DNA of 37,793 nucleotides, taken from the NCBI GenBank assembly GCA_000787465.1, contig JSYX01000330.1, positions 1-37,793 of the forward strand, given 5' to 3'. Made by a program: the position numbers and the translations under genes. A model generated the notes under the pieces. That model searched no databases and had not been told where the DNA came from. It saw only the letters and a list, made by a program, of their open reading frames with translations. This stretch comes from Thermomucor indicae-seudaticae (taxonomy: Eukaryota > Mucoromycota > Mucoromycetes > Mucorales > Lichtheimiaceae). Shown here piece after piece: positions 3,233 through 36,486 of the stretch. How positions within the stretch are numbered: position 1 is the stretch's first letter; each line of letters opens with the position of its first letter.

Positions 3233-5553
3233 TCATTCTTCAAACAATTTCAAAAGCGCCTTCTTTGTAACTTTACCCATCGCGTTCTTGGGTAGTGCGG
3301 GTGTGACCTTCAGCAGGTGAGGAATTTTGTACACTGCCACCCTTGACTTCATTACACTTCGCATAGTAGCAACGTCGAGACTCTATTTTGCAAAGAGCGT
3401 CAGATGAGAACTCAAAAATGGAAGGCTGTGTCTTGTCCTTTACCTTGTTGTCTTCAAGAACCACAACCGCAGCCACACGCTGGCCCCACTCTGGGTCAGG
3501 TACGCCTATCACCGCAACATCTTGAATGCCCAAATCGCACGATAACAGTTCTCGCTCAATTTCCAATGCAGACACTTTCTCTCCTCCAGTCTACCTCGGT
3601 ATGAGTATCACGTCGGCAGTCTCGATGCAGTATTTTTCATGTACCTTGATAATATCAACGCTGGCCCGGCCAAGTATCTGGAAGTATCCTTGCTGGCGCG
3701 TACGGACGGCGAAGTCGCCTGTTTTGAACCTAAATGATAAAAACAAGATATCTAAGCTGCTGCTCCGTTGGCTTTATCATCATGGCAACAAGCTGACTTA
3801 CCAACCGTCTTCTGTGAACTCTCTCTGTGTGGCTTCCGGTTTACGCCAGTATTCCTTAAAGACGTTTGGTCCTTTCACTTGAATCATACCAGGGGTATCT
3901 CGAAGCTCCGTGACGTCCTTGTCAAATACGCCTGATCCTTCTTCAGACTCGGCCATAAGTCGCACCTGTACGCCTGGTAAAGGAATTCCAACGGTGCCCT
4001 GAAGTTCCCCATGTTAGCTTAAAGGTCGTCAATTGTGGGATTGTTTTCGGCTTACCTCAACTCTCTCTGAAACAGGGTATTCCTGGCTAAGAGCCATGCC
4101 GATTTCTTGGAAAGTTTGAACGGGTTGGGGAACGTTCCCATATATGCCGCAATTATTTAATCAACTTACCAGTCATACCGTAACGTTCCAGCAGAACCTG
4201 CCCGCAACTGATTCGACGCCAAGTGTCTCGAATGGGAGTGGGGAGAGATGCAGAGCCGGATACCATGAAACGGAATTGCTTGCATGCTTCTGAGTGGGCT
4301 GCTTTGTCTTCTTCACTTAGTGACTGATAATAACTGATGAGCTTCGCTAGCATATAAGTTGCATCGTGAGCGGACGAAGACATGCATACAATATTCGCAG
4401 TCAACTTACAGTAAACTGTAGGCACAGACATGAAAATGGTTAACGGAGGAGCCACGTCACGCTGTTTAGAGCTGTTTTCTGTTGACTTTACAGGGCTGCT
4501 AGCAAGCCAGCGGTCCCAAACTCCTTTGCTGTCAAACTTCTGATGCATTTCAACTGTTGCGCCAGCATATAGAGCACAAGTCAATGCGTTGATGATGCCA
4601 TGAACGTGATGAAGAGGAAGGATGTGATGAATACGGTCATTGCGAGTCCAATACCATGCTTCGACAAGGACGGAAGTTTGTTTATCAATGTTCTTGTGGG
4701 TGCTTACGGCGCCCTTTGGTTTCCCTGTATTATTATGCGCGTTGTTCAATGTGCCCAGCATACGACGCTCGATGCAAACCACTTATCGTACCTGTCGTGC
4801 CGCTCGTGTAAATGATCATTGCCCTTCTTTCTATATCCATGTCGAATGTCTCTGGAAGCTCCGTCTGCAATGCATAAATGTTCTAAGTCTGAAATACGAG
4901 TCTAAACACTTTGCCAGATATCTTACTTCATTGCTTGAATTTAGAGTTTCATCGTCTAGCAGCAGTAGTTGCACATTTACGGCTTCTTTAATTAGTGTCC
5001 TTGCACGTTCTTCGAACAGTGTGTGGCCGATAAGGATAGTTGCTTCAGAGTCCTGAATAGTGTACAATTGCTCGGGAATAGGATGAGTCGTGCCTGTTGA
5101 TGGTAATAAGTATATCATACAACATTGAAATAGAGGTTCTGCCTTACAAATAGGTACAGCTATGCCTCCAGCAGCCCAGACTGCCCATTGGCTTGCGACA
5201 TAAGGGAAGCCACTAGCAGCAACGATGAATTAGTCCTACTGACTGCGGTTATTCAAAATAAAGCTGCTTTATGGGAATACCACCTTGGACATAGAATAGC
5301 AACACGTTGCTCTTGTAGATCGCTACCGGCAATGCATGAGTCATTTTCAAAGTTCCATCTAGCACGGGTAGGCGGGAGACACGCACCTCTTTCCAGCCAG
5401 CAGCTTATTGCGTAACAACGCTGCTGCAGTCACCAACTCAGCATAAGAGAATGACCTGTCTTGTCGTACATCATCCACGGCCGGCCCGAGACCTTCATTA
5501 GCATAAGAGAGAGCACGCTTAAAGAGTGGGATGTTGGGTAATGCTAAAGTCAT
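3233..5553 (-). CDS. ACSF3-like malonyl/acyl-CoA synthetase
   Basis: The protein is an AMP-forming acyl-CoA synthetase of the ANL superfamily, closest in pattern to ACSF3 (malonyl-CoA synthetase, mitochondrial in animals). It would activate a carboxylic acid as an acyl-adenylate and pass it to CoA. The model is complement(join(3233..3382, 3444..3590, 3645..3728, 3802..3998, 4055..4105, 4170..4346, 4410..4724, 4792..4864, 4927..5093, 5148..5212, 5284..5322, 5387..5553)), 12 exons and 543 residues. All 11 introns are GT-AG and 51-73 nt long, and the frame closes. Key motifs after splicing are [13 protein letters not shown] (P-loop, about residues 165-177), [25 protein letters not shown], the FKTGDFAV hinge region, [16 protein letters not shown] and the catalytic-lysine tail [11 protein letters not shown]. 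The start is the first ATG of the exon carrying [11 protein letters not shown]. No strong targeting peptide is evident. A malonate-binding preference cannot be read with certainty, so methylmalonate or a medium-chain acid remain possible substrates. Confidence 0.9.
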
Positions 5554-7414
5554 GGTTATAAAGTAACTGTTCCTCTGCAGCCGTTGTAATTCATTCGCTG
5601 CGTCTATAAGTTTACCCGCTCCTCACAGTGTTCGGCTGTCTCTCCGAAAACTTGCAAGTACAGGATATCTGGGGCAAAGCGGTTTTCTCTGTTTCAGCCT
5701 CGTTATGAACAGCTGCAGCCATTCCTAACGAACGCTACGATAAGGACTGTTACCAAGAACGTAGGACATGAGACTGTGTTTCTGACCAAGAAACGAAAGT
5801 AGATCGAAACCTCTCGGTATACAGTGAAAAAAGTTTTGATATGCGACCTCTTGGGTGTAATTTATATGGTATGATAAGACATAGTTGCAGTAGCCATCAT
5901 CAAATACGTATCGTGAGCACCAACCTTTGCAATCTGATGCCGTGGCTTGTTTTAAAGTAGAATATGCACTTTATGGGTACAGAAAGCCAAGGACTTTGCT
6001 TGGCAGAACAAGTGCGGTCTTCCTCCGCCCTGAGAACGCTCGTCAAGTCAGACGACCAGCGCAATTAGCTTTACAAAGTCGCCATTATGGCGCGTTACGT
6101 CCCGTTAAAATTACTGGGTTTTTCTGTCTGTTTTGCGCTGAAGCAAAAACCTTTTGACGCTGCTGGGGGCGAGTATTTTGCACGATTTTCATTTTTCGTT
6201 TCGCTGTTTTTACTAAGCGATGTTTAACACCAAGTATTCGGCATCTCTTGTCAGTATGATGAAGAACGCATCAGTGCATCATTATAAAGTTCCAGATAGG
6301 CCTCTTGCAAGAGTTCGCTAAAATCATGCCACGTTAGATGTCTCGGCCAAAATAGATATTTAAACAAAGGGCGTTCATCCAATATTCAACATTCTTTTGT
6401 CTTCCCGTTTCTTCTTCATACCACAAGCATCCTCAAGTCGCGCACTCTTTGAAAACTTATATAATTATACTGTCCATGCCATCCACAAGAGTCCATCTAC
6501 GAACATTCTCATGTAAGCCCAGAGATATTTGTTCCCCTTCCGCGTAAGACTTCTGACCTGTGATGCTCCTACTCGTAAGGCAGACAACGAAGGTCTGTTA
6601 TGGATGCAATGAAGGTTGTTTCCAAAGGCAAGGGTATTCTTTGCCAAGTCGCGTGATGGTACGTTCTTTCTGTTTCGATTTTCTATTGATGCAAATTCTC
6701 AGGATGATGATAGGTTTTTCGCCTTTTCACTTTGGGGAATGTGCGGCCGACTGCGGGCCTAATCGGCAGGGGTATGGGTGGGACATTTGGGCTTTCGTTG
6801 TAGTGAATCCTGGCGTTGAGCCCAGGACCGCCCCTGCGGGGCGTACAGGTGTAAGTGTAAATGATTTATTGAAGCAAAGTGACAAATGGACTGACCGCAT
6901 ATTCTGATATCTCTTTGCTGCAAGTTATCGTATCTCTTTTCCGTAAATCATTTTGTTTTCCCTGTCCAAAATCTTTTGTACATTACTGCAAATTTTAAAA
7001 AGTAAACCTGTAATCCTTTGCAGTGCGACCGGAAAAAGAAACGTAGCCCCATCCAGGCTGTTTAACCTATGCAGAACATACATGACCTGACGCGTCATCC
7101 TATGTCATAAACCTGGATTGCGTACGAAAGTATCGTATTTGCTCCGTCTTCTCGGCTTTCATAAACACCAAATGCCTCAGCAAAGTTGAATTTAAACGAC
7201 TGGCGCTGATGGCAATCCTTGTAAGGTGCGGTTATTGAGAGCTTTTCAACTCATGTGCCAGATCCCTTGACCTGCGTGATACACTATATCCACATAGAAC
7301 TTGAGCAAAGGCTTCGAGCTGGTCATTGCTATTGTCAAGAGCTTAAACCCAGCTGACTTTCGATCCGAAAGTTTCGTAGAGAAGTGCGTCAGGGCCCGAT
7401 TCCGTCCTTGCTCA
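5554..7414. other. Long intergenic region, no gene seen
   Basis: This stretch of about 1.9 kb holds no open frame that I can tie to a family. The open frames at 5927-6157 and 6560-6907 show no recognisable domain. The segment near 6040-6200 has a repeat-like composition, and two adjacent hairpins lie at 6808-6843 (listed separately). The region contains the divergent promoters of the acyl-CoA synthetase gene (-) and the Tim17-like gene (+). Confidence 0.4.
6808..6843. repeat. Two adjacent short hairpins
   Basis: TCCTGG (6808-6813) pairs with CCAGGA (6822-6827) across an 8-nt loop. It is followed at once by CGCCCC (6829-6834) pairing with GGGGCG (6838-6843) across a TGC loop. Both stems are perfect. 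They sit in otherwise gene-free DNA, so they could be part of a structured RNA, a relic of a mobile-element end, or chance. I see no tRNA or other known RNA signature around them. Confidence 0.35.
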
Positions 7415-29383: not shown

Positions 29384-30352
<969 letters not shown>

Positions 30353-31438
30353 GACGCGCGGCGCGTGCCAAGTAAAACGAATACAAAAATTCGAATGGAC
30401 CGCGTTCACTGGGTTTGAAAGCCACCAGGAAGGGACCAATGGCCTGTGAGGGGTAACGATCAATCTTGGTCCGTTGCTTGGAGCGGTTTTAGGTTAGGTA
30501 TCGCATTGCTCAGATATTAGACTCGAAAGACACACAATGGCTTCTCTCTACGATGATACTTTTGCAGTGATAAACTCAACCTGTTATCAAGACTCAACTA
30601 AACCCATTTCCGATAGCCAGTCTTGGCAAACAAACCCATTCTGGGAGAGGTAAAGATGCGGCAAAACGATATTCCCTCCGTCTCTGCGTCCGGGGTAAGG
30701 TAGATGATGCAGTTATGACAAAAAGCAACGGCGTGCGCTGTGTTCTTTACCACGGTCATTCATACCGCAGACTCGTTATTCTGGTGACGTTTCTGGTAAA
30801 CATTTGAGACTGCACCGGGATCAAACGACATTGATCCAAGAACCTCCGAAAACCATCAGACCGCTTTCCTGCAAGAACTGTCATCGCGTGCCCTGTCGTA
30901 TTGTGAGGTCATCCGGATTGTAAGATTCAGCACTGCGACTCTTAATCCACGTTTTGAGGGAAAAGATTCTCGCCAGGTACTGCTAGATCAGATGCGATGA
31001 GCAACTGTGGAGTCTTTTCATTGGTCGGATCAAAAAGCGATGTTGCCTTTTCATTGCATCATACCGTCGCGGACGCGTATTTTTTTCCCCTCGCAATAAA
31101 TAAGGGAATAAAGCGCTGGACGCATAAACGGATCGATGGTCTATGAAATAGTCGGTGATCTGTGTTGCGACCGGAAGATTACGGACCTGGCTGCCCGGTT
31201 GCAAGTGATGATCGACTAATGACTCACGTGCCATTAATATCTCGCACTGTGAAATCTTTTTTTATGCGAAAGGACTGGGCCCCCAAAACCAGCCTTTCTG
31301 GAAAAAGCGTGGGTCAACCCCAACAAAACAGTAAACAAAAATTTTTCCGTGTAGAAACTATAAAAGAGGGCCAAGCATTCGACCCATGACGCGCTCTCCT
31401 CTTCCTCTCTTACTCTAGCTTTTGTTTTGCAAACCATC
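30353..31438. other. Divergent promoter region of thymidylate synthase and THI4
   Basis: This stretch of about 1.1 kb lies between two divergently transcribed genes. I see no coding sequence. A TATA box for THI4 lies at 31359-31365. I looked here for a 5' TPP riboswitch (CTGAGA core, CTGGATAAT) and found none. Confidence 0.5.
31359..31365 (+). promoter_or_regulatory. TATA box of THI4
   Basis: TATAAAA lies 80 bp before the THI4 start codon and is followed by a pyrimidine-rich stretch (TCTCCTCTTCCTCTCTTACTC, 31394-31414) that fits a transcription start region. This arrangement leaves a short 5' UTR of roughly 30-50 nt, with no room for a 5' aptamer. Confidence 0.6.
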
Positions 31439-32556
<1,118 letters not shown>

Positions 32557-32609
32557 GCCGACACAAGGGGAGGGTACAACGAACAGAAGCGAAATTATGG
32601 GCGAAAAAG

Positions 32610-32611
32610 GT
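32610..32611 (+). other. Candidate 5' splice site in THI4 3' UTR
   Basis: AAAAAG|GTACGTG, 53 nt after the THI4 stop codon, is a strong donor consensus. Possible acceptors downstream are TTATTTTCCAG ending at 32865 and TTTTCTTAG ending at 32883. An intron between these would contain the whole TPP aptamer and the AATAAA at 32777-32782. Use of the site is inference. Confidence 0.5.
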
Positions 32612-32653
32612 ACGTGTTGATTGTATCAGAAACACCGTTGCTTCTGGACAATC

Positions 32654-32749
32654 GGCACTAGGGGCGCTTGGTTGCAATCTTTTTATGCGCCAGGCTGAGA
32701 TTGTACCCTCAACTACTTGATCTGGATAATACCAGCGAAAGGAAGTGCC
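32654..32749 (+). promoter_or_regulatory. TPP riboswitch aptamer downstream of THI4
   Basis: The segment has the conserved core of the thiamine pyrophosphate aptamer in the right order. P1 is GGCACT (32654-32659) pairing perfectly with AGTGCC (32744-32749). P2 is GGG (32661-32663) with CCC (32706-32708). P3 is closed by GGCGC (32663-32667) and GCGCC (32687-32691). The invariant CTGAGA lies at 32695-32700, before ACCC. P4/P5 reads CTTGATCTGGATAATACCAGCG, with CTGG (32722-32725) pairing to CCAG (32732-32735). The CTGAGA and CTGG-ATAAT-CCAG elements bind the pyrimidine and pyrophosphate ends of TPP in known structures. It begins 97 nt after the THI4 stop on the same strand, and the next gene starts 526 nt later with its own TATA box. 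It is therefore most likely in the THI4 3' UTR, where TPP could control splicing or 3'-end choice. Confidence 0.92.
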
Positions 32750-32776
32750 ATTGTTCCCTATTAACCTGACTTACCA

Positions 32777-32782
32777 AATAAA
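32777..32782 (+). terminator. AATAAA polyadenylation signal after the aptamer
   Basis: AATAAA lies 28 nt beyond the aptamer and about 220 nt beyond the THI4 stop. It is a plausible poly(A) signal for THI4 and would be removed if the candidate 3'-UTR intron were spliced. Confidence 0.5.
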
Positions 32783-33275
32783 TACATGTTCCCCACCCCT
32801 ATTGAACCCCCACGAAATGTCTTGTCTAATGGATGGAAGTGGAACGGTCTTCGTTTATTTTCCAGAGTCTATGGTTTTCTTAGTGTGGGAAAGAACACTC
32901 GAAGTCGAGGTCATCTGGCTTGTCACTGGGGTACTGTCTCTTTCCACTATTGCATTTACACCTTGAAAATCTCGATCTTTCTGTTTAAGCCCGGATAGCT
33001 TTGATGCATGGAAAGTAGACGTCGATTGCATGCCTATCTGCAACTTGCAAGTAAAAGATAGCAAGATGGTTCCATTGATTGGGCAAAGGTCGTACGATTT
33101 TCCTTCTGCTGGCCGTCAATTCACAATGACCAATCGTATCCATGCAATGAGGCCATGCTTCTTCATCGCTGGATAATATGAGTTGCGACCCCCCTGATCA
33201 CCCACTATTAATATATATCTATCGAACGCACGGTTCTATTATATTTCCCCTCTTCTCCTTTTCTCTTCATATTTC

Positions 33276-33815
33276 ATGGAACACGAAGACGATTTCAGTA
33301 CTTGGCCCAGTCGATACTATGGCCGTACTCGACATATCGATTTAGAACAACTCTACAAGGACGTTTTAACCCAAGTGCACGAACTCAAATCACATCGTCG
33401 CGTCAGCTTTTCTTCTGAACCACCCATCGTCCATGAATATGAACCCGAAGAAGACGAAGAGGATGAGAACGAGGATCGTGAGAGTCGACTAGCAAGTCTT
33501 CAACTGGATGGCATCAAGCAGCATCGAAGGAATCTGGATTTACGGCCTATACCAAACTTTGAATATCTTGAGCGCAAAAGGGCATCATTGGCCGTCACCG
33601 CCATTGATAACAGCACAGTTCCGGACTTGATCCCGGATGATACAGAAGATGATAATGCCTCATCCCCGGAAGCTTCGCCTACAACGGAAACGCCTCTGTC
33701 ACTACCTGATGACAAACAACCTGCAGCTGGCAAGAATAATATCCTCCTTCGAGTCCGCAGCTTACCATCCTTTTTACGGCCTTTCCGGGGAAAACACTGT
33801 AAAAAGTTTATGTAG
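33276..33815 (+). CDS. Small acidic protein with PP1-docking RVxF motif
   Basis: A single-exon frame of 179 codons has a TATA-like TATATAT (about 33212) and a CT-rich leader before the ATG. I do not recognise a named family. HRRVSFSSEPPIVHEYEPEE (about residues 40-59) contains an RVSF match to the RVxF motif that docks onto protein phosphatase 1, followed by the aromatic/acidic context often seen in fungal PP1 regulators. Around it lie an acidic run (EEDEEDENEDRE) and Ser/Thr/Pro-rich segments with likely disorder. The C-terminus is basic and ordered-looking (LLRVRSLPSFLRPFRGKHCKKF). No signal peptide or membrane segment is seen. A regulatory subunit or substrate of PP1 is inference from the motif. 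Confidence 0.7.
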   Translation: MEHEDDFSTWPSRYYGRTRHIDLEQLYKDVLTQVHELKSHRRVSFSSEPPIVHEYEPEEDEEDENEDRESRLASLQLDGIKQHRRNLDLRPIPNFEYLERKRASLAVTAIDNSTVPDLIPDDTEDDNASSPEASPTTETPLSLPDDKQPAAGKNNILLRVRSLPSFLRPFRGKHCKKFM

Positions 33816-34066: not shown

Positions 34067-36118
34067 TCATCCTCTTTTGTTATAATGAAGGGTATACTTG
34101 TTCAACGGTGGCTGTTGTTCCGCTGACTTTTCTTCCATCCATCTACACGCCGTCAACATTCTCTCGGCATCCATAAAAGCTTCCGTTGCCGTTTGAATGA
34201 AATCCTTGTTTTTCAGTGCTTGTTGGCTTTCCAATAGCCGTCCAAATTCCGCCACTTTTTGTCGAAGCACTTCAAATTGTTTTTCCACTTGCTGTTGCTG
34301 TTGCCTTGATCGATCTGCATTTGAAGAAGAAGAAGCCTGCTGATGATGATGGTGATGATGAGGAACAAACGGAGGATGTGGATGCTTGTGGATTAGTGTA
34401 ACATGGCCCGTCTTCTTCTCTAAGTCAATAATGATCGTCAATGCACCCGCGCAGTCGTATCGATTGACTGTCTTGGAGGAATCGCCTCCGCCTTTTCGTG
34501 GTTTCGCGGTATCTGCCCGCTGGGAACAATAATATCGAAGTGTCGACAGTGTGTCTGGGGCTTTTGTCGATCGTCGACGATCTTTCATGCTGATCCCATA
34601 TATACATATGCTTAGCAAACCACCGTCATAATATATCCGTCAGACGAGCCACCTTTACCTAAAATTGAATTTGGTACCAGTCAATATCAAGTCGCATATC
34701 GCGCGTCCAATCTGTGTGAATCCAGCATCCTTGCCCAACTCTGTGATGAGAGGCTGTATGTCGACGACGTATTGCTTTCTGTCAAATTCGCTTTCTTGTT
34801 GTAAAGCAAGCACAAAGTTGTTGGGTGATAAGATAGCCTGACTTGTCGTCTTGTCGTCGTATTGATTACTACTGTTAGATCGCGTCGCACGATTACTATT
34901 AACGTTATTATTAGTGATATGTTCCTTGCTCTCTTTGCTGGTGGTCGTAGGCGTGGCGTCGTTGTTGGTAGTTGTTTGGACCAAAGTCAGATCAGGCAAG
35001 ACACTGATGGGTCTTACAGAAGAAGAGGTTGGTACTTGTTGCTGCTGCTGTTGCATGTGTGGTAGAGGAGAGATCTGCCTCATATGATGTAATGCAGAGG
35101 ACGTCGGTACATTGGATGGTGCCGTGACAGACGGTAACGGTTGTAAAGGATATGGAGATGGTTCCTGGACTCGGTGCTGCTGAGGGTAAGTCTGTTGCTG
35201 TTGTTGTAGTGGTAATGATAACGGAAGGGGAAGCGGCGGTTGAGCTACACGCTGAACATTATGAACCTGTAACTGTGGATCAAGGTGAGCCTGCGAGTTT
35301 TGTATTGCAGCTGTTGAGAAATGACCAGGAGGCTTATTGAGCTGTTGATCTTGAGCCTGTTGCTGTTGTTGGTTTATACTGGCCATGACCGAAGCTGAAG
35401 ATAACGCAGGCGGTGGCTGATTGATCTGAGGAGATGATATCGACTGCGGCGATGGTCGCTGTTGCTGCTGCTGCTGTTGAGGATGATAGTGAGGCGGTAG
35501 TCGTAAAGGAGCAGGCATTTGTAAGTGTGTTTGAAGCGGATTAGGTGATATTGCATGCATGGGTTGTGTCGGCGCGTATGGTCGCTGCTGCTGTCGTTGG
35601 TGTTGGTTGCTTGTCTGTGTATATGCTGCTGCTTGAGGCTCCTTATATATCTTGTGTTCTTCCTTGTACGCATCATTATATCGTTCAGCCTGATACTTTT
35701 GTTTCTGCAACTTTCGCGACTTGCACAGATTACACATGTTATAGTCGAATCCACCTCTCTCGTCATGAAAATAAGAAATATGCCGAATGGTCTGGCAGCG
35801 TTGGCAATACACCGTATCTGAACTGCCGGGAGGTAATAAGTCGTTCCCTGTACGACTCGGTTCACCTTGTCCGTTCGCTGTGTTGCTGCTGTTCCCTCCG
35901 GAAGCTGCCGCTGCTACCGCTGCCACTGCCGCTGCAGAAACTCCTGGTGGGTAACCAGCGGTTGACATGGCAGGAGACGCATGAGAACTTGCGCTCGTTA
36001 CTGCTGACATGGTCTGAAACCCTGGATGATTCAGCACCGAACGGCGATGATGGCCTTGATGTTGTATGGGTGTCGCGTAGCCAAGAGGCTGAAATGCGCG
36101 CGGAGGCCCATGTGACAT
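34067..36118 (-). CDS. Gln-rich protein with two putative zinc-binding regions
   Basis: Two exons, complement(join(34067..34589, 34659..36118)), give 660 residues; the 69-nt intron joins TGTKFNF to SMKDRRRSTK. The first putative zinc site is C-x2-C-x20-C-x2-C (residues 105-132: YCQRC ... MCNLCKSRK), followed by a basic Lys/Gln helix. A long Gln/Pro/Ser-rich, disordered region (about 165-420) contains several poly-Gln runs. A conserved-looking segment ends exon 1 (RKQYVVDIQPLITELGKDAG). Exon 2 has a second cysteine/histidine pattern, RYYCSQ ... RYDCAGALTIIIDLEK ... VTLIHKHPHPP, with the C-C-H-H order of WRKY/FLYWCH-like fingers. Poly-His, a further Gln run and a coiled coil (QVEKQFEVLRQKVAEFGRLL) follow. 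A nuclear transcription regulator is likely by composition; no family name is certain. Confidence 0.75.
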
Positions 36119-36486
36119 AACGAACTGAAAGTCTTTTTACACTGCCTGTTCAAACGCACACCAAAGCCTTGCACCTGCAAAGTCCAGCTGAGCTGTAGGG
36201 ATCAGAACGCAATTCACACGCAGAATGCATTTCATTGGTCAGTAGGATACCGACTCTACTGATGCTGCTAAGCTGGCCGCGTATCTACCAGCATTCTGAA
36301 ATAACATATCAAATATAAAAAACGCCTATCTTCCACTATAATCCATAGCACTATAAGAATTTTTATTATTACTTACACGTAAGTTATCATGAAGCTGTTG
36401 AGACGTGCCAAGCGAAATACCCTTCTTAGCGATTCACCTCTGGCTCCTTTACCCGATCAATATCATTTCTTTTCGACTGTTGTAAC
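36119..36486. other. Promoter-side intergenic region
   Basis: This stretch lies upstream of the Gln-rich gene (-). I see no open frame or RNA signature. AT-rich stretches (36300-36380) include TATA-like sequence, but none is placed well enough to assign. Confidence 0.35.

What the first reader, a model, noticed from the sequence alone, without database searches (positions are those of the whole stretch)
32557..32890. TPP riboswitch in the THI4 3' UTR of a fungus
The aptamer (32654-32749) shows P1-P5, CTGAGA and CTGG-ATAAT-CCAG intact, yet it follows the THI4 stop instead of preceding the start. It is bracketed by a strong donor (GTACGT at 32610) and by AATAAA (32777), with acceptors at 32865 or 32883. 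Known fungal TPP riboswitches (Neurospora NMT1 and THI4, Aspergillus thiA) sit in 5' introns. This layout instead resembles plant THIC, where TPP controls removal of a 3'-UTR intron carrying the poly(A) signal. I do not know whether 3' aptamers are already reported in this fungal group.
Basis: partly seen in the sequence, partly recalled or inferred. Interest (0 to 1): 0.9.

Follow-up and report, generated by a model that had tools for sequence, protein, structure and literature searches.

The report
Vitamin B1 riboswitches after fungal genes
In this fungus, likely of the bread-mould order Mucorales, sequences matching the vitamin-B1-sensing (TPP) riboswitch family lie just after, instead of before, the genes for both halves of the vitamin, where they likely shut the genes down by splicing away the signal that ends the message, a kind of control described in plants.

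Summary
Confirmed. Window 32650-32760 (+) matches Rfam RF00059 at 64.9 bits (gathering 54.3), starting 94 nt after the THI4 stop codon. The 24.8-Mb genome yields one other aptamer (61.8 bits), and it lies 3' of the other fungal thiamine-precursor gene, NMT1/THI5. NMT1's next gene downstream is on the opposite strand, so a 5'-leader reading is very unlikely there. Both 3' regions have the same order: stop, the region's only good 5' splice site, aptamer, the region's only AATAAA, best acceptor. A THI4 tree places it beside Fennellomyces and Circinella. In the passages read, fungal TPP riboswitches sit in 5' UTRs or internal introns; the one 3'-UTR case named is eIF5B in Postia. Most likely TPP exposes the donor and splicing removes aptamer and poly(A) signal, like plant THIC in outcome but not in anatomy: the plant-type acceptor inside the aptamer scores poorly here. 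Folding gives mixed support for a donor/P1 switch in THI4 and little in NMT1. No transcript or binding data. New variant of a known kind; a key survey (Moldovan 2018) could not be read.

The parts
31439..32556 (+). THI4 (thiamine thiazole synthase): exons 31439-31647, 31707-32233, 32294-32378, 32439-32556; stop TAA 32554-32556
   Evidence: Open spliced frame of 312 aa; Pfam PF01946 353.2 bits; best PDB match Thiazole biosynthetic enzyme 1rp0, E 1.7e-128; only copy found in the genome
32610..32615 (+). Candidate 5' splice site GTACGT (AAG|GTACGT) in the 3' UTR, 53 nt between it and the stop codon
   Evidence: Score 8.82, 49th percentile of 72 self-trained introns, 1 per 3,394 nt; only donor over 5 between the stop and 33270
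32614..32634 (+). 5' arm of the predicted anti-P1 helix; overlaps donor positions +5/+6
   Evidence: Pairs with 32639-32658 in unconstrained folds; donor +5/+6 unpaired at most 0.01 in 5 of 5 segments; 9 of 300 shuffles capture the P1 strand as well
32639..32658 (+). 3' arm of the predicted anti-P1 helix, taking in P1 5'-strand bases 32654-32658
32650..32760 (+). TPP riboswitch aptamer (core 32654-32749; P1 32654-32659/32744-32749, CUGAGA 32695-32700, P5 32722-32735)
   Evidence: RF00059, 64.9 bits, gathering 54.3; one of two found in the genome
32777..32782 (+). AATAAA, presumed poly(A) signal, 27 nt between it and P1
   Evidence: Only AATAAA between the stop and 33270; its use as a signal is inferred, and AATAAA is only weakly enriched at ORF ends here
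32852..32865 (+). Candidate 3' splice site CGTTTATTTTCCAG| (intron 32610-32865, 256 nt)
   Evidence: Score 8.57, 76th percentile of 72 introns, 1 per 2,305 nt; best acceptor between the stop and 33270
33276..33815 (+). Downstream gene, 179 aa, no Pfam family; TATATA at 33212 may be its own promoter

Best explanation
Sequences matching the TPP riboswitch aptamer lie 3' of the coding regions of both THI4 and NMT1 in this fungus, where they would likely act as feedback off-switches by letting thiamine pyrophosphate (TPP) turn on splicing of a 3'-UTR intron that carries the aptamer and the only AATAAA. Shown by calls: the aptamer matches, their places, the splice-site-like and AATAAA sequences, and, as a folding prediction for THI4, a helix beside the donor that excludes P1. 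Inferred: with little TPP the strand next to the THI4 donor (32614-32634) holds the P1 5' strand, the donor is hindered, the intron stays and the message is cleaved after AATAAA and is stable; with TPP the aptamer closes P1, that strand is released, the donor is used with the acceptor at 32865, AATAAA is lost, and the message runs on or is not polyadenylated and decays. For NMT1 the same splice outcome (L003:4815 to 5184) is proposed, but the RNA switch that would gate it is not identified.
For: RF00059 at 64.9 and 61.8 bits, the only two found in 24.8 Mb at E up to 10, with 49 of 862 first-look candidates scored; an aptamer-core pattern finds only these two, backwards control 0. The hosts are THI4 and NMT1, the two fungal thiamine-precursor genes, each found once. 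NMT1's next gene downstream is on the minus strand. Each 3' region has one donor over 5 (8.82; 7.91), upstream of the aptamer, and its best acceptor (8.57; 7.74) downstream of its only AATAAA; such a pair is met at 0.49% of 20,000 random places. TATAAA lies under 100 nt before each start codon, leaving little room for a 5' riboswitch. THI4: donor +5/+6 locked in a helix that excludes P1 in 5 of 5 segments and 3 of 3 longer ones; 9 of 300 shuffles reach its P1 capture, 3 of 300 its free energy. Plant precedent: splicing at high TPP removes the poly(A) signal (PMC3665906, PMC5853225, PMC10043782; passages).
Against: No RNA data. THI4: with P1 or the aptamer enforced the donor as a whole (-3 to +6) is less open in 2 of 5 segments and 2 of 3, because a small local hairpin forms. 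NMT1: enforcing P1 changes the donor little (mean unpaired 0.15 to 0.19 and 0.17 to 0.18; 0.20 to 0.19, 0.19 to 0.19 and 0.10 to 0.25), and its P1 strand is not captured by the upstream segment (0.0, reached by 300 of 300 shuffles). Donor-to-aptamer pairing is no better than shuffles (49 and 96 of 500 reach it). NMT1 has another usable acceptor at 4989 (6.48) before the aptamer, whose use would keep aptamer and AATAAA. The proposed introns (256 and 370 nt) are much longer than 13 read by eye (54-69 nt). The rank of acceptor 32865 depends on the model (97th percentile; lowest; 76th). A THI4 branch-point match (CTAAT, A at 32829, read from the sequence) is about 36 nt from the acceptor, against 11-24 in the 17 of 72 introns with such a match. 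AATAAA is weakly enriched at ORF ends: 8 in the first 50 nt after 147 ends, about 3.5 expected, 5 antisense. Diatom 3'-UTR TPP aptamers showed no thiamine response (PMC9544697, passages).
Confidence: 0.5

Rival explanations
1. TPP acts on 3'-end formation without splicing: the aptamer closes next to AATAAA and changes cleavage and polyadenylation, or message stability, directly.
For: In both genes AATAAA follows the aptamer closely (27 nt after P1 in THI4; 18 nt after the extended P1 in NMT1). NMT1 folding shows little donor switch. Some algal 3'-UTR TPP aptamers are in single-exon genes (PMC4260697, passages).
Against: Does not account for a lone average-strength donor upstream and a strong acceptor downstream at both genes.
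Confidence: 0.22
2. TPP chooses between acceptors: in NMT1 the extended P1 helix starts 1 nt after the acceptor at L003:4989 and would block it when TPP is bound, pushing splicing to 5184 and removing AATAAA.
For: Acceptors 5184 (7.74) and 4989 (6.48) are the two best of the region; bases 4991-4996 are complementary to 5091-5096.
Against: THI4 has no comparable acceptor before its aptamer (32661 scores 0.43), so the two genes would work differently.
Confidence: 0.12
3. The aptamers belong to the 5' leaders of downstream genes rather than to THI4 and NMT1.
For: The gene after THI4 (33276-33815) is on the same strand, 515 nt beyond the Rfam hit.
Against: It has no Pfam family and TATATA at 33212. 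After NMT1 the next gene is on the minus strand, and the next long + frame with an ATG, read by eye at L003:6331, is 1.2 kb beyond the aptamer and behind that gene.
Confidence: 0.03
4. The aptamers are intact but do not respond to thiamine in the cell, as reported for diatom THIC.
For: Precedent of a conserved but non-responsive 3'-UTR aptamer in Phaeodactylum (PMC9544697, passages).
Against: Splice-site bracketing at both genes; that paper reports no obvious splice acceptor near the diatom P2.
Confidence: 0.1

Closest known systems
Plant THIC 3'-UTR TPP riboswitch (Wachter 2007 and Bocobza 2007, not held; seen as cited in PMC3665906, PMC5853225, PMC12371167, PMC10043782, passages)
   Same: TPP aptamer 3' of a thiamine-precursor gene, donor upstream of it, and a layout in which splicing would remove the poly(A) signal
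   Different: The best acceptor here lies after the aptamer and AATAAA, so the whole aptamer would go; in plants the spliced form lacks only 7 nt of the aptamer and the processing site is upstream of it; donor-aptamer pairing not supported here
THI1 3'-UTR TPP riboswitch of ancient plant taxa (one sentence in PMC3665906)
   Same: 3'-UTR aptamer on the plant homologue of THI4
   Different: Plants, not fungi; its splicing anatomy was not described in the passage seen
Fungal type I-IV TPP riboswitches (Neurospora NMT1, THI4, NCU01977; Mukherjee 2018, PMC5882874, passages)
   Same: Same aptamer class, same target genes, splicing control in types I-III
   Different: All four types have the aptamer in a 5' UTR or an internal intron, not after the stop codon
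Postia placenta eIF5B 3'-UTR aptamer (PMC5882874, passage)
   Same: A fungal TPP aptamer called in a 3' UTR
   Different: Unrelated host gene; the authors' folding method did not validate it
3'-UTR TPP aptamers of diatoms, Micromonas and Aureococcus (PMC9544697, PMC4260697, passages)
   Same: 3'-UTR place; in two algae on SSUA/THI5-like genes
   Different: Other lineages; those THI5-like genes are single-exon; the diatom aptamer tested did not respond to thiamine

Membership tests
TPP riboswitch class (RF00059) | Covariance score over the curated threshold, full length | tested here: met
   64.9 and 61.8 bits against 54.3, positions 1-105 of 105
TPP riboswitch class (RF00059) | CUGAGA and GCG motifs and helices P1, P2, P4, P5 | tested here: met
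   Present in both aptamers; NMT1 P1 has two non-standard pairs in the Rfam register but can form an alternative, extended P1
TPP riboswitch class (RF00059) | Binds TPP | not testable with these tools
   Needs in-line probing or calorimetry
Fungal type I-IV TPP riboswitches | Aptamer in the 5' UTR or in an internal intron | tested here: not met
   Both aptamers follow the stop codon; no other aptamer found in the genome
Plant THIC-type 3'-UTR riboswitch | Aptamer 3' of the coding region with a donor upstream of it | tested here: met
   Donor sequences at 32610 and L003:4815; their use is untested
Plant THIC-type 3'-UTR riboswitch | Acceptor inside the 5' edge of the aptamer | tested here: not met
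   AG at 32661 scores 0.43 and at L003:5002 3.03; better acceptors lie downstream
Plant THIC-type 3'-UTR riboswitch | Poly(A) processing site inside the intron, upstream of the aptamer | tested here: inconclusive
   The only AATAAA is downstream of the aptamer, though inside the proposed intron; real cleavage sites unknown
Plant THIC-type 3'-UTR riboswitch | Donor pairs with the aptamer in the free state (P4/P5 in plants; recalled) | tested here: inconclusive
   Donor-aptamer duplex no better than shuffles; THI4 has an anti-P1 helix instead
Plant THIC-type 3'-UTR riboswitch | TPP-dependent splicing and 3'-end choice | not testable with these tools
   No transcript data

The most novel reading that the evidence does not exclude
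A fungal lineage independently evolved plant-style control of vitamin B1 synthesis: both precursor genes end in a self-erasing riboswitch, in which TPP triggers splicing that cuts out the sensor together with the only poly(A) signal, so the gene loses its message end when the vitamin is plentiful.
Probability: 0.4. Interest if true: 0.8.

Novelty: new variant of a known kind. Interest (0 to 1): 0.6.

Why it matters
In the review passages read here, TPP control of a 3'-UTR intron is given for plants, while fungal switches act on introns 5' of or within the coding region (PMC10043782). A fungus with 3' aptamers on both precursor genes, bracketed by splice sites and a poly(A) signal, would be a second lineage with this logic and a pair for testing how one aptamer is coupled to splicing and 3'-end formation. 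It also suggests (inference) that fungal surveys could miss 3' aptamers or assign them to the wrong neighbour.

Tried and rejected
5' leader of a neighbour: very unlikely for NMT1 (minus-strand neighbour), unlikely for THI4. Chance hit: rejected by score and by the second copy. Plant-type acceptor in P2: scored and not supported. Direct donor-aptamer pairing: not better than shuffles. Exon-junction decay: the recalled rule of about 50 nt after the stop does not fit NMT1, whose donor is 13 nt after the stop, so not proposed. Further aptamers: a looser pattern gave four places, the two aptamers and two others (L043, L044) that the genome-wide RF00059 search did not list; these were not scanned or folded apart. 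A P4/P5 motif with up to 3 mismatches gave 213 places against 97 for the pattern read backwards; of the best ten, two are the aptamers and the other eight (L005, L007-L013) carried no TPP match in Rfam at E up to 5; the other 203 were not examined one by one. Relatives: THI4 in genome contigs gave 20 pattern matches, none a relative, and viral contigs nothing; no eukaryotic DNA collection was open, so whether other Mucorales share the 3' layout is untested. Splice models: the first two drifted and were replaced, whose intron length window (50-77 nt) was imposed by me; 72 introns against 11 in the reversed control. Their scores for 32865 differ as told under evidence against; the NMT1 donor scored -1.11. 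One search translated from a wrong start base; one search corrects it.

Full report
What was checked. The window is a whole contig (G000:C285) of a 24.8-Mb genome in 735 contigs. Rfam finds one match over gathering in it: the TPP riboswitch RF00059 at 32650-32760 (+), 64.9 bits (gathering 54.3), E 1.1e-10, full length. The sequence shows P1 GGCACU/AGUGCC, CUGAGA, P5 with its AUAAUA loop, and GCG. The gene upstream is THI4: four exons from 31439, stop at 32554-32556, 312 aa, Pfam Thi4 353.2 bits, nearest solved chain the thiazole biosynthetic enzyme 1rp0. The Rfam hit begins 94 nt after the stop codon.

The second case. The genome search finds one more RF00059 match, C56:84490-84601, 61.8 bits, and no third at E up to 10; 49 of 862 first-look candidates were scored. 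A pattern for the aptamer core finds the same two places and nothing else, with no match for the pattern read backwards. In locus L003 the second aptamer (4991-5102) lies 3' of NMT1/THI5 (exons 3638-3672, 3736-4303, 4373-4801, stop 4799-4801; Pfam NMT1 245.7 bits; nearest solved chain THI5 4h65). The next gene is an L30e-type ribosomal protein gene on the minus strand, seen in two pieces, one over and one just under the Pfam cut-off. The next long + frame with an ATG, read by eye, starts at 6331, 1.2 kb beyond the aptamer and behind that gene. A 5'-leader reading is therefore very unlikely. THI4 and NMT1 were each found once. Both have TATAAA less than 100 nt before the start codon.

Layout of the 3' regions. 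I trained a donor and acceptor model on 22 sequences of this genome (495,586 nt over both strands), starting from 13 introns read by eye (54-69 nt). Two earlier models drifted. The one used selected 72 introns, and 11 in a reversed-sequence control; I limited its introns to 50-77 nt. In the THI4 3' region (to 33270) one donor scores over 5: 32610, AAG|GTACGT, 8.82, 49th percentile of the 72. The only AATAAA is at 32777, between aptamer and acceptor. In the NMT1 3' region (L003 to 5500) one donor scores over 5: 4815, 7.91, 26th percentile. The best acceptor ends at 5184 (7.74, 61st percentile), the next at 4989 (6.48, 35th percentile), before the aptamer; the only AATAAA is at 5115. A donor of at least 7.9 within 60 nt plus an acceptor of at least 7.7 at +220 to +400 occurs at 0.49% of 20,000 random places. 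Of 44 ends of frames of 200 aa or more, 0 have such a donor; these were not checked to be gene ends. The thresholds were set from the two observed loci, so these rates are descriptive. The rank of acceptor 32865 depends on the model: 97th percentile, lowest. AATAAA itself is only weakly enriched at ORF ends (8 in the first 50 nt after 147 ends, about 3.5 expected, 5 antisense).

Folding. In THI4 the sequence from donor position +5 onward (32614-32634) forms a long hairpin with 32639-32658 that takes in the 5' strand of P1. Donor positions +5 and +6 are unpaired with probability at most 0.01 in 5 of 5 segments folded without constraint, and pair with the P1 strand at 0.99 or more in 3 of 3 longer ones. 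Enforcing P1 costs 4.2 to 8.1 kcal/mol. When the upstream segment was shuffled, 9 of 300 captured the P1 strand as well, and 3 of 300 had as low a free energy. Against this, the donor as a whole (-3 to +6) is on average less open with P1 or the aptamer enforced in 2 of 5 segments and 2 of 3, because a small local hairpin takes over. In NMT1 the donor pairs with a U-rich tract just before the aptamer, and enforcing P1 changes it little (0.15 to 0.19 and 0.17 to 0.18; 0.20 to 0.19, 0.19 to 0.19 and 0.10 to 0.25). Its P1 strand is not captured by the upstream segment. Its P1 can be extended, starting 1 nt after the acceptor at 4989, so an acceptor choice is possible there. Direct pairing of donor and aptamer is not better than shuffles in either gene (49 and 96 of 500 reach it).

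Which fungus. Of the 30 best THI4 protein matches (120 listed of 2,547), 28 are from genera that I recall as Mucorales, at 72-81% identity; the other two are Calcarisporiella and the alga Auxenochlorella. A tree of 26 sequences (25 picked from the 120 listed, plus this one) puts it beside Fennellomyces and Circinella with support 100/98, highest identity 82%. The order is inferred from this one protein.

Mechanism. The best reading is a TPP-gated 3'-UTR intron. With little TPP the donor is hindered, AATAAA is used and the message is stable. With TPP the intron 32610-32865 is spliced out, taking aptamer and AATAAA. Aptamer matches, positions and splice-site-like sequences are shown; TPP binding, splicing, cleavage-site use and decay are inferred. 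The main rival is direct control of 3'-end formation, since AATAAA follows the aptamer closely in both genes.

Comparison with print. [quoted passage not shown] also PMC10043782, and PMC12371167, passages). A 3'-UTR riboswitch on THI1, the plant THI4, in ancient plant taxa is mentioned in PMC3665906. [quoted passage not shown] here the equivalent AG scores 0.43 and 3.03. So it would work like plant THIC in outcome, but it does not meet that type's anatomy. Fungi: Mukherjee 2018 (PMC5882874, passages) defines four types, all 5' or internal; it says 3'-UTR places were found too, but the only one named in the passages is eIF5B in Postia, not validated by their folding, and it lists an NMT1 riboswitch in a Mucor without giving its place there. 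Vargas-Junior 2024 (PMC11683625, passages and outline) reports Mucoromycota aptamers at THI4, NMT1 and sugar transporters; type I (5' UTR) predominates in its whole set, and the place of the Mucoromycota THI4 and NMT1 ones was not stated in what I saw. [quoted passage not shown] The searches led to no fungal THI4 or NMT1 3' case in what I read of their hits, which was a part. Moldovan 2018 is not held and supplements could not be opened, so priority is not settled. Diatom 3'-UTR aptamers that look sound did not respond to thiamine (PMC9544697, passages), a real caution.

Verdict. A twice-found 3' placement of TPP aptamers in a likely Mucorales fungus, with a layout that fits splicing control; a new variant of a known kind, mechanism about even odds.

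Noticed in passing
L003:4815-5184: NMT1 has two candidate acceptors (4989 and 5184) on either side of its aptamer, with the extended P1 helix starting 1 nt after the first; this could be an acceptor switch.
   Followed up: partly
window 29387-30490 (-): Thymidylate synthase gene in two adjoining frames (Pfam PF00303 in both), divergent from THI4, with roughly 1 kb between.
   Followed up: partly
window 33276-33815: 179-aa acidic protein with no Pfam family and an RVSF motif (recalled as a PP1-docking motif) downstream of THI4.
   Followed up: no
window 34655-36136 (-): Long glutamine-rich frame with a cysteine cluster (CQRCQTIR...CNLC) and no Pfam hit.
   Followed up: no
protein hits P0001, P0046, P0049 and others: Several Apophysomyces and Mortierella-type Thi4 proteins are named triosephosphate isomerase in public records, which looks like a propagated misnaming.
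   Followed up: no
protein hit P0079: A record named Citrobacter portucalensis holds a THI4 71% identical to this one on a 1.5-kb contig among plant hits, probably contamination.
   Followed up: no
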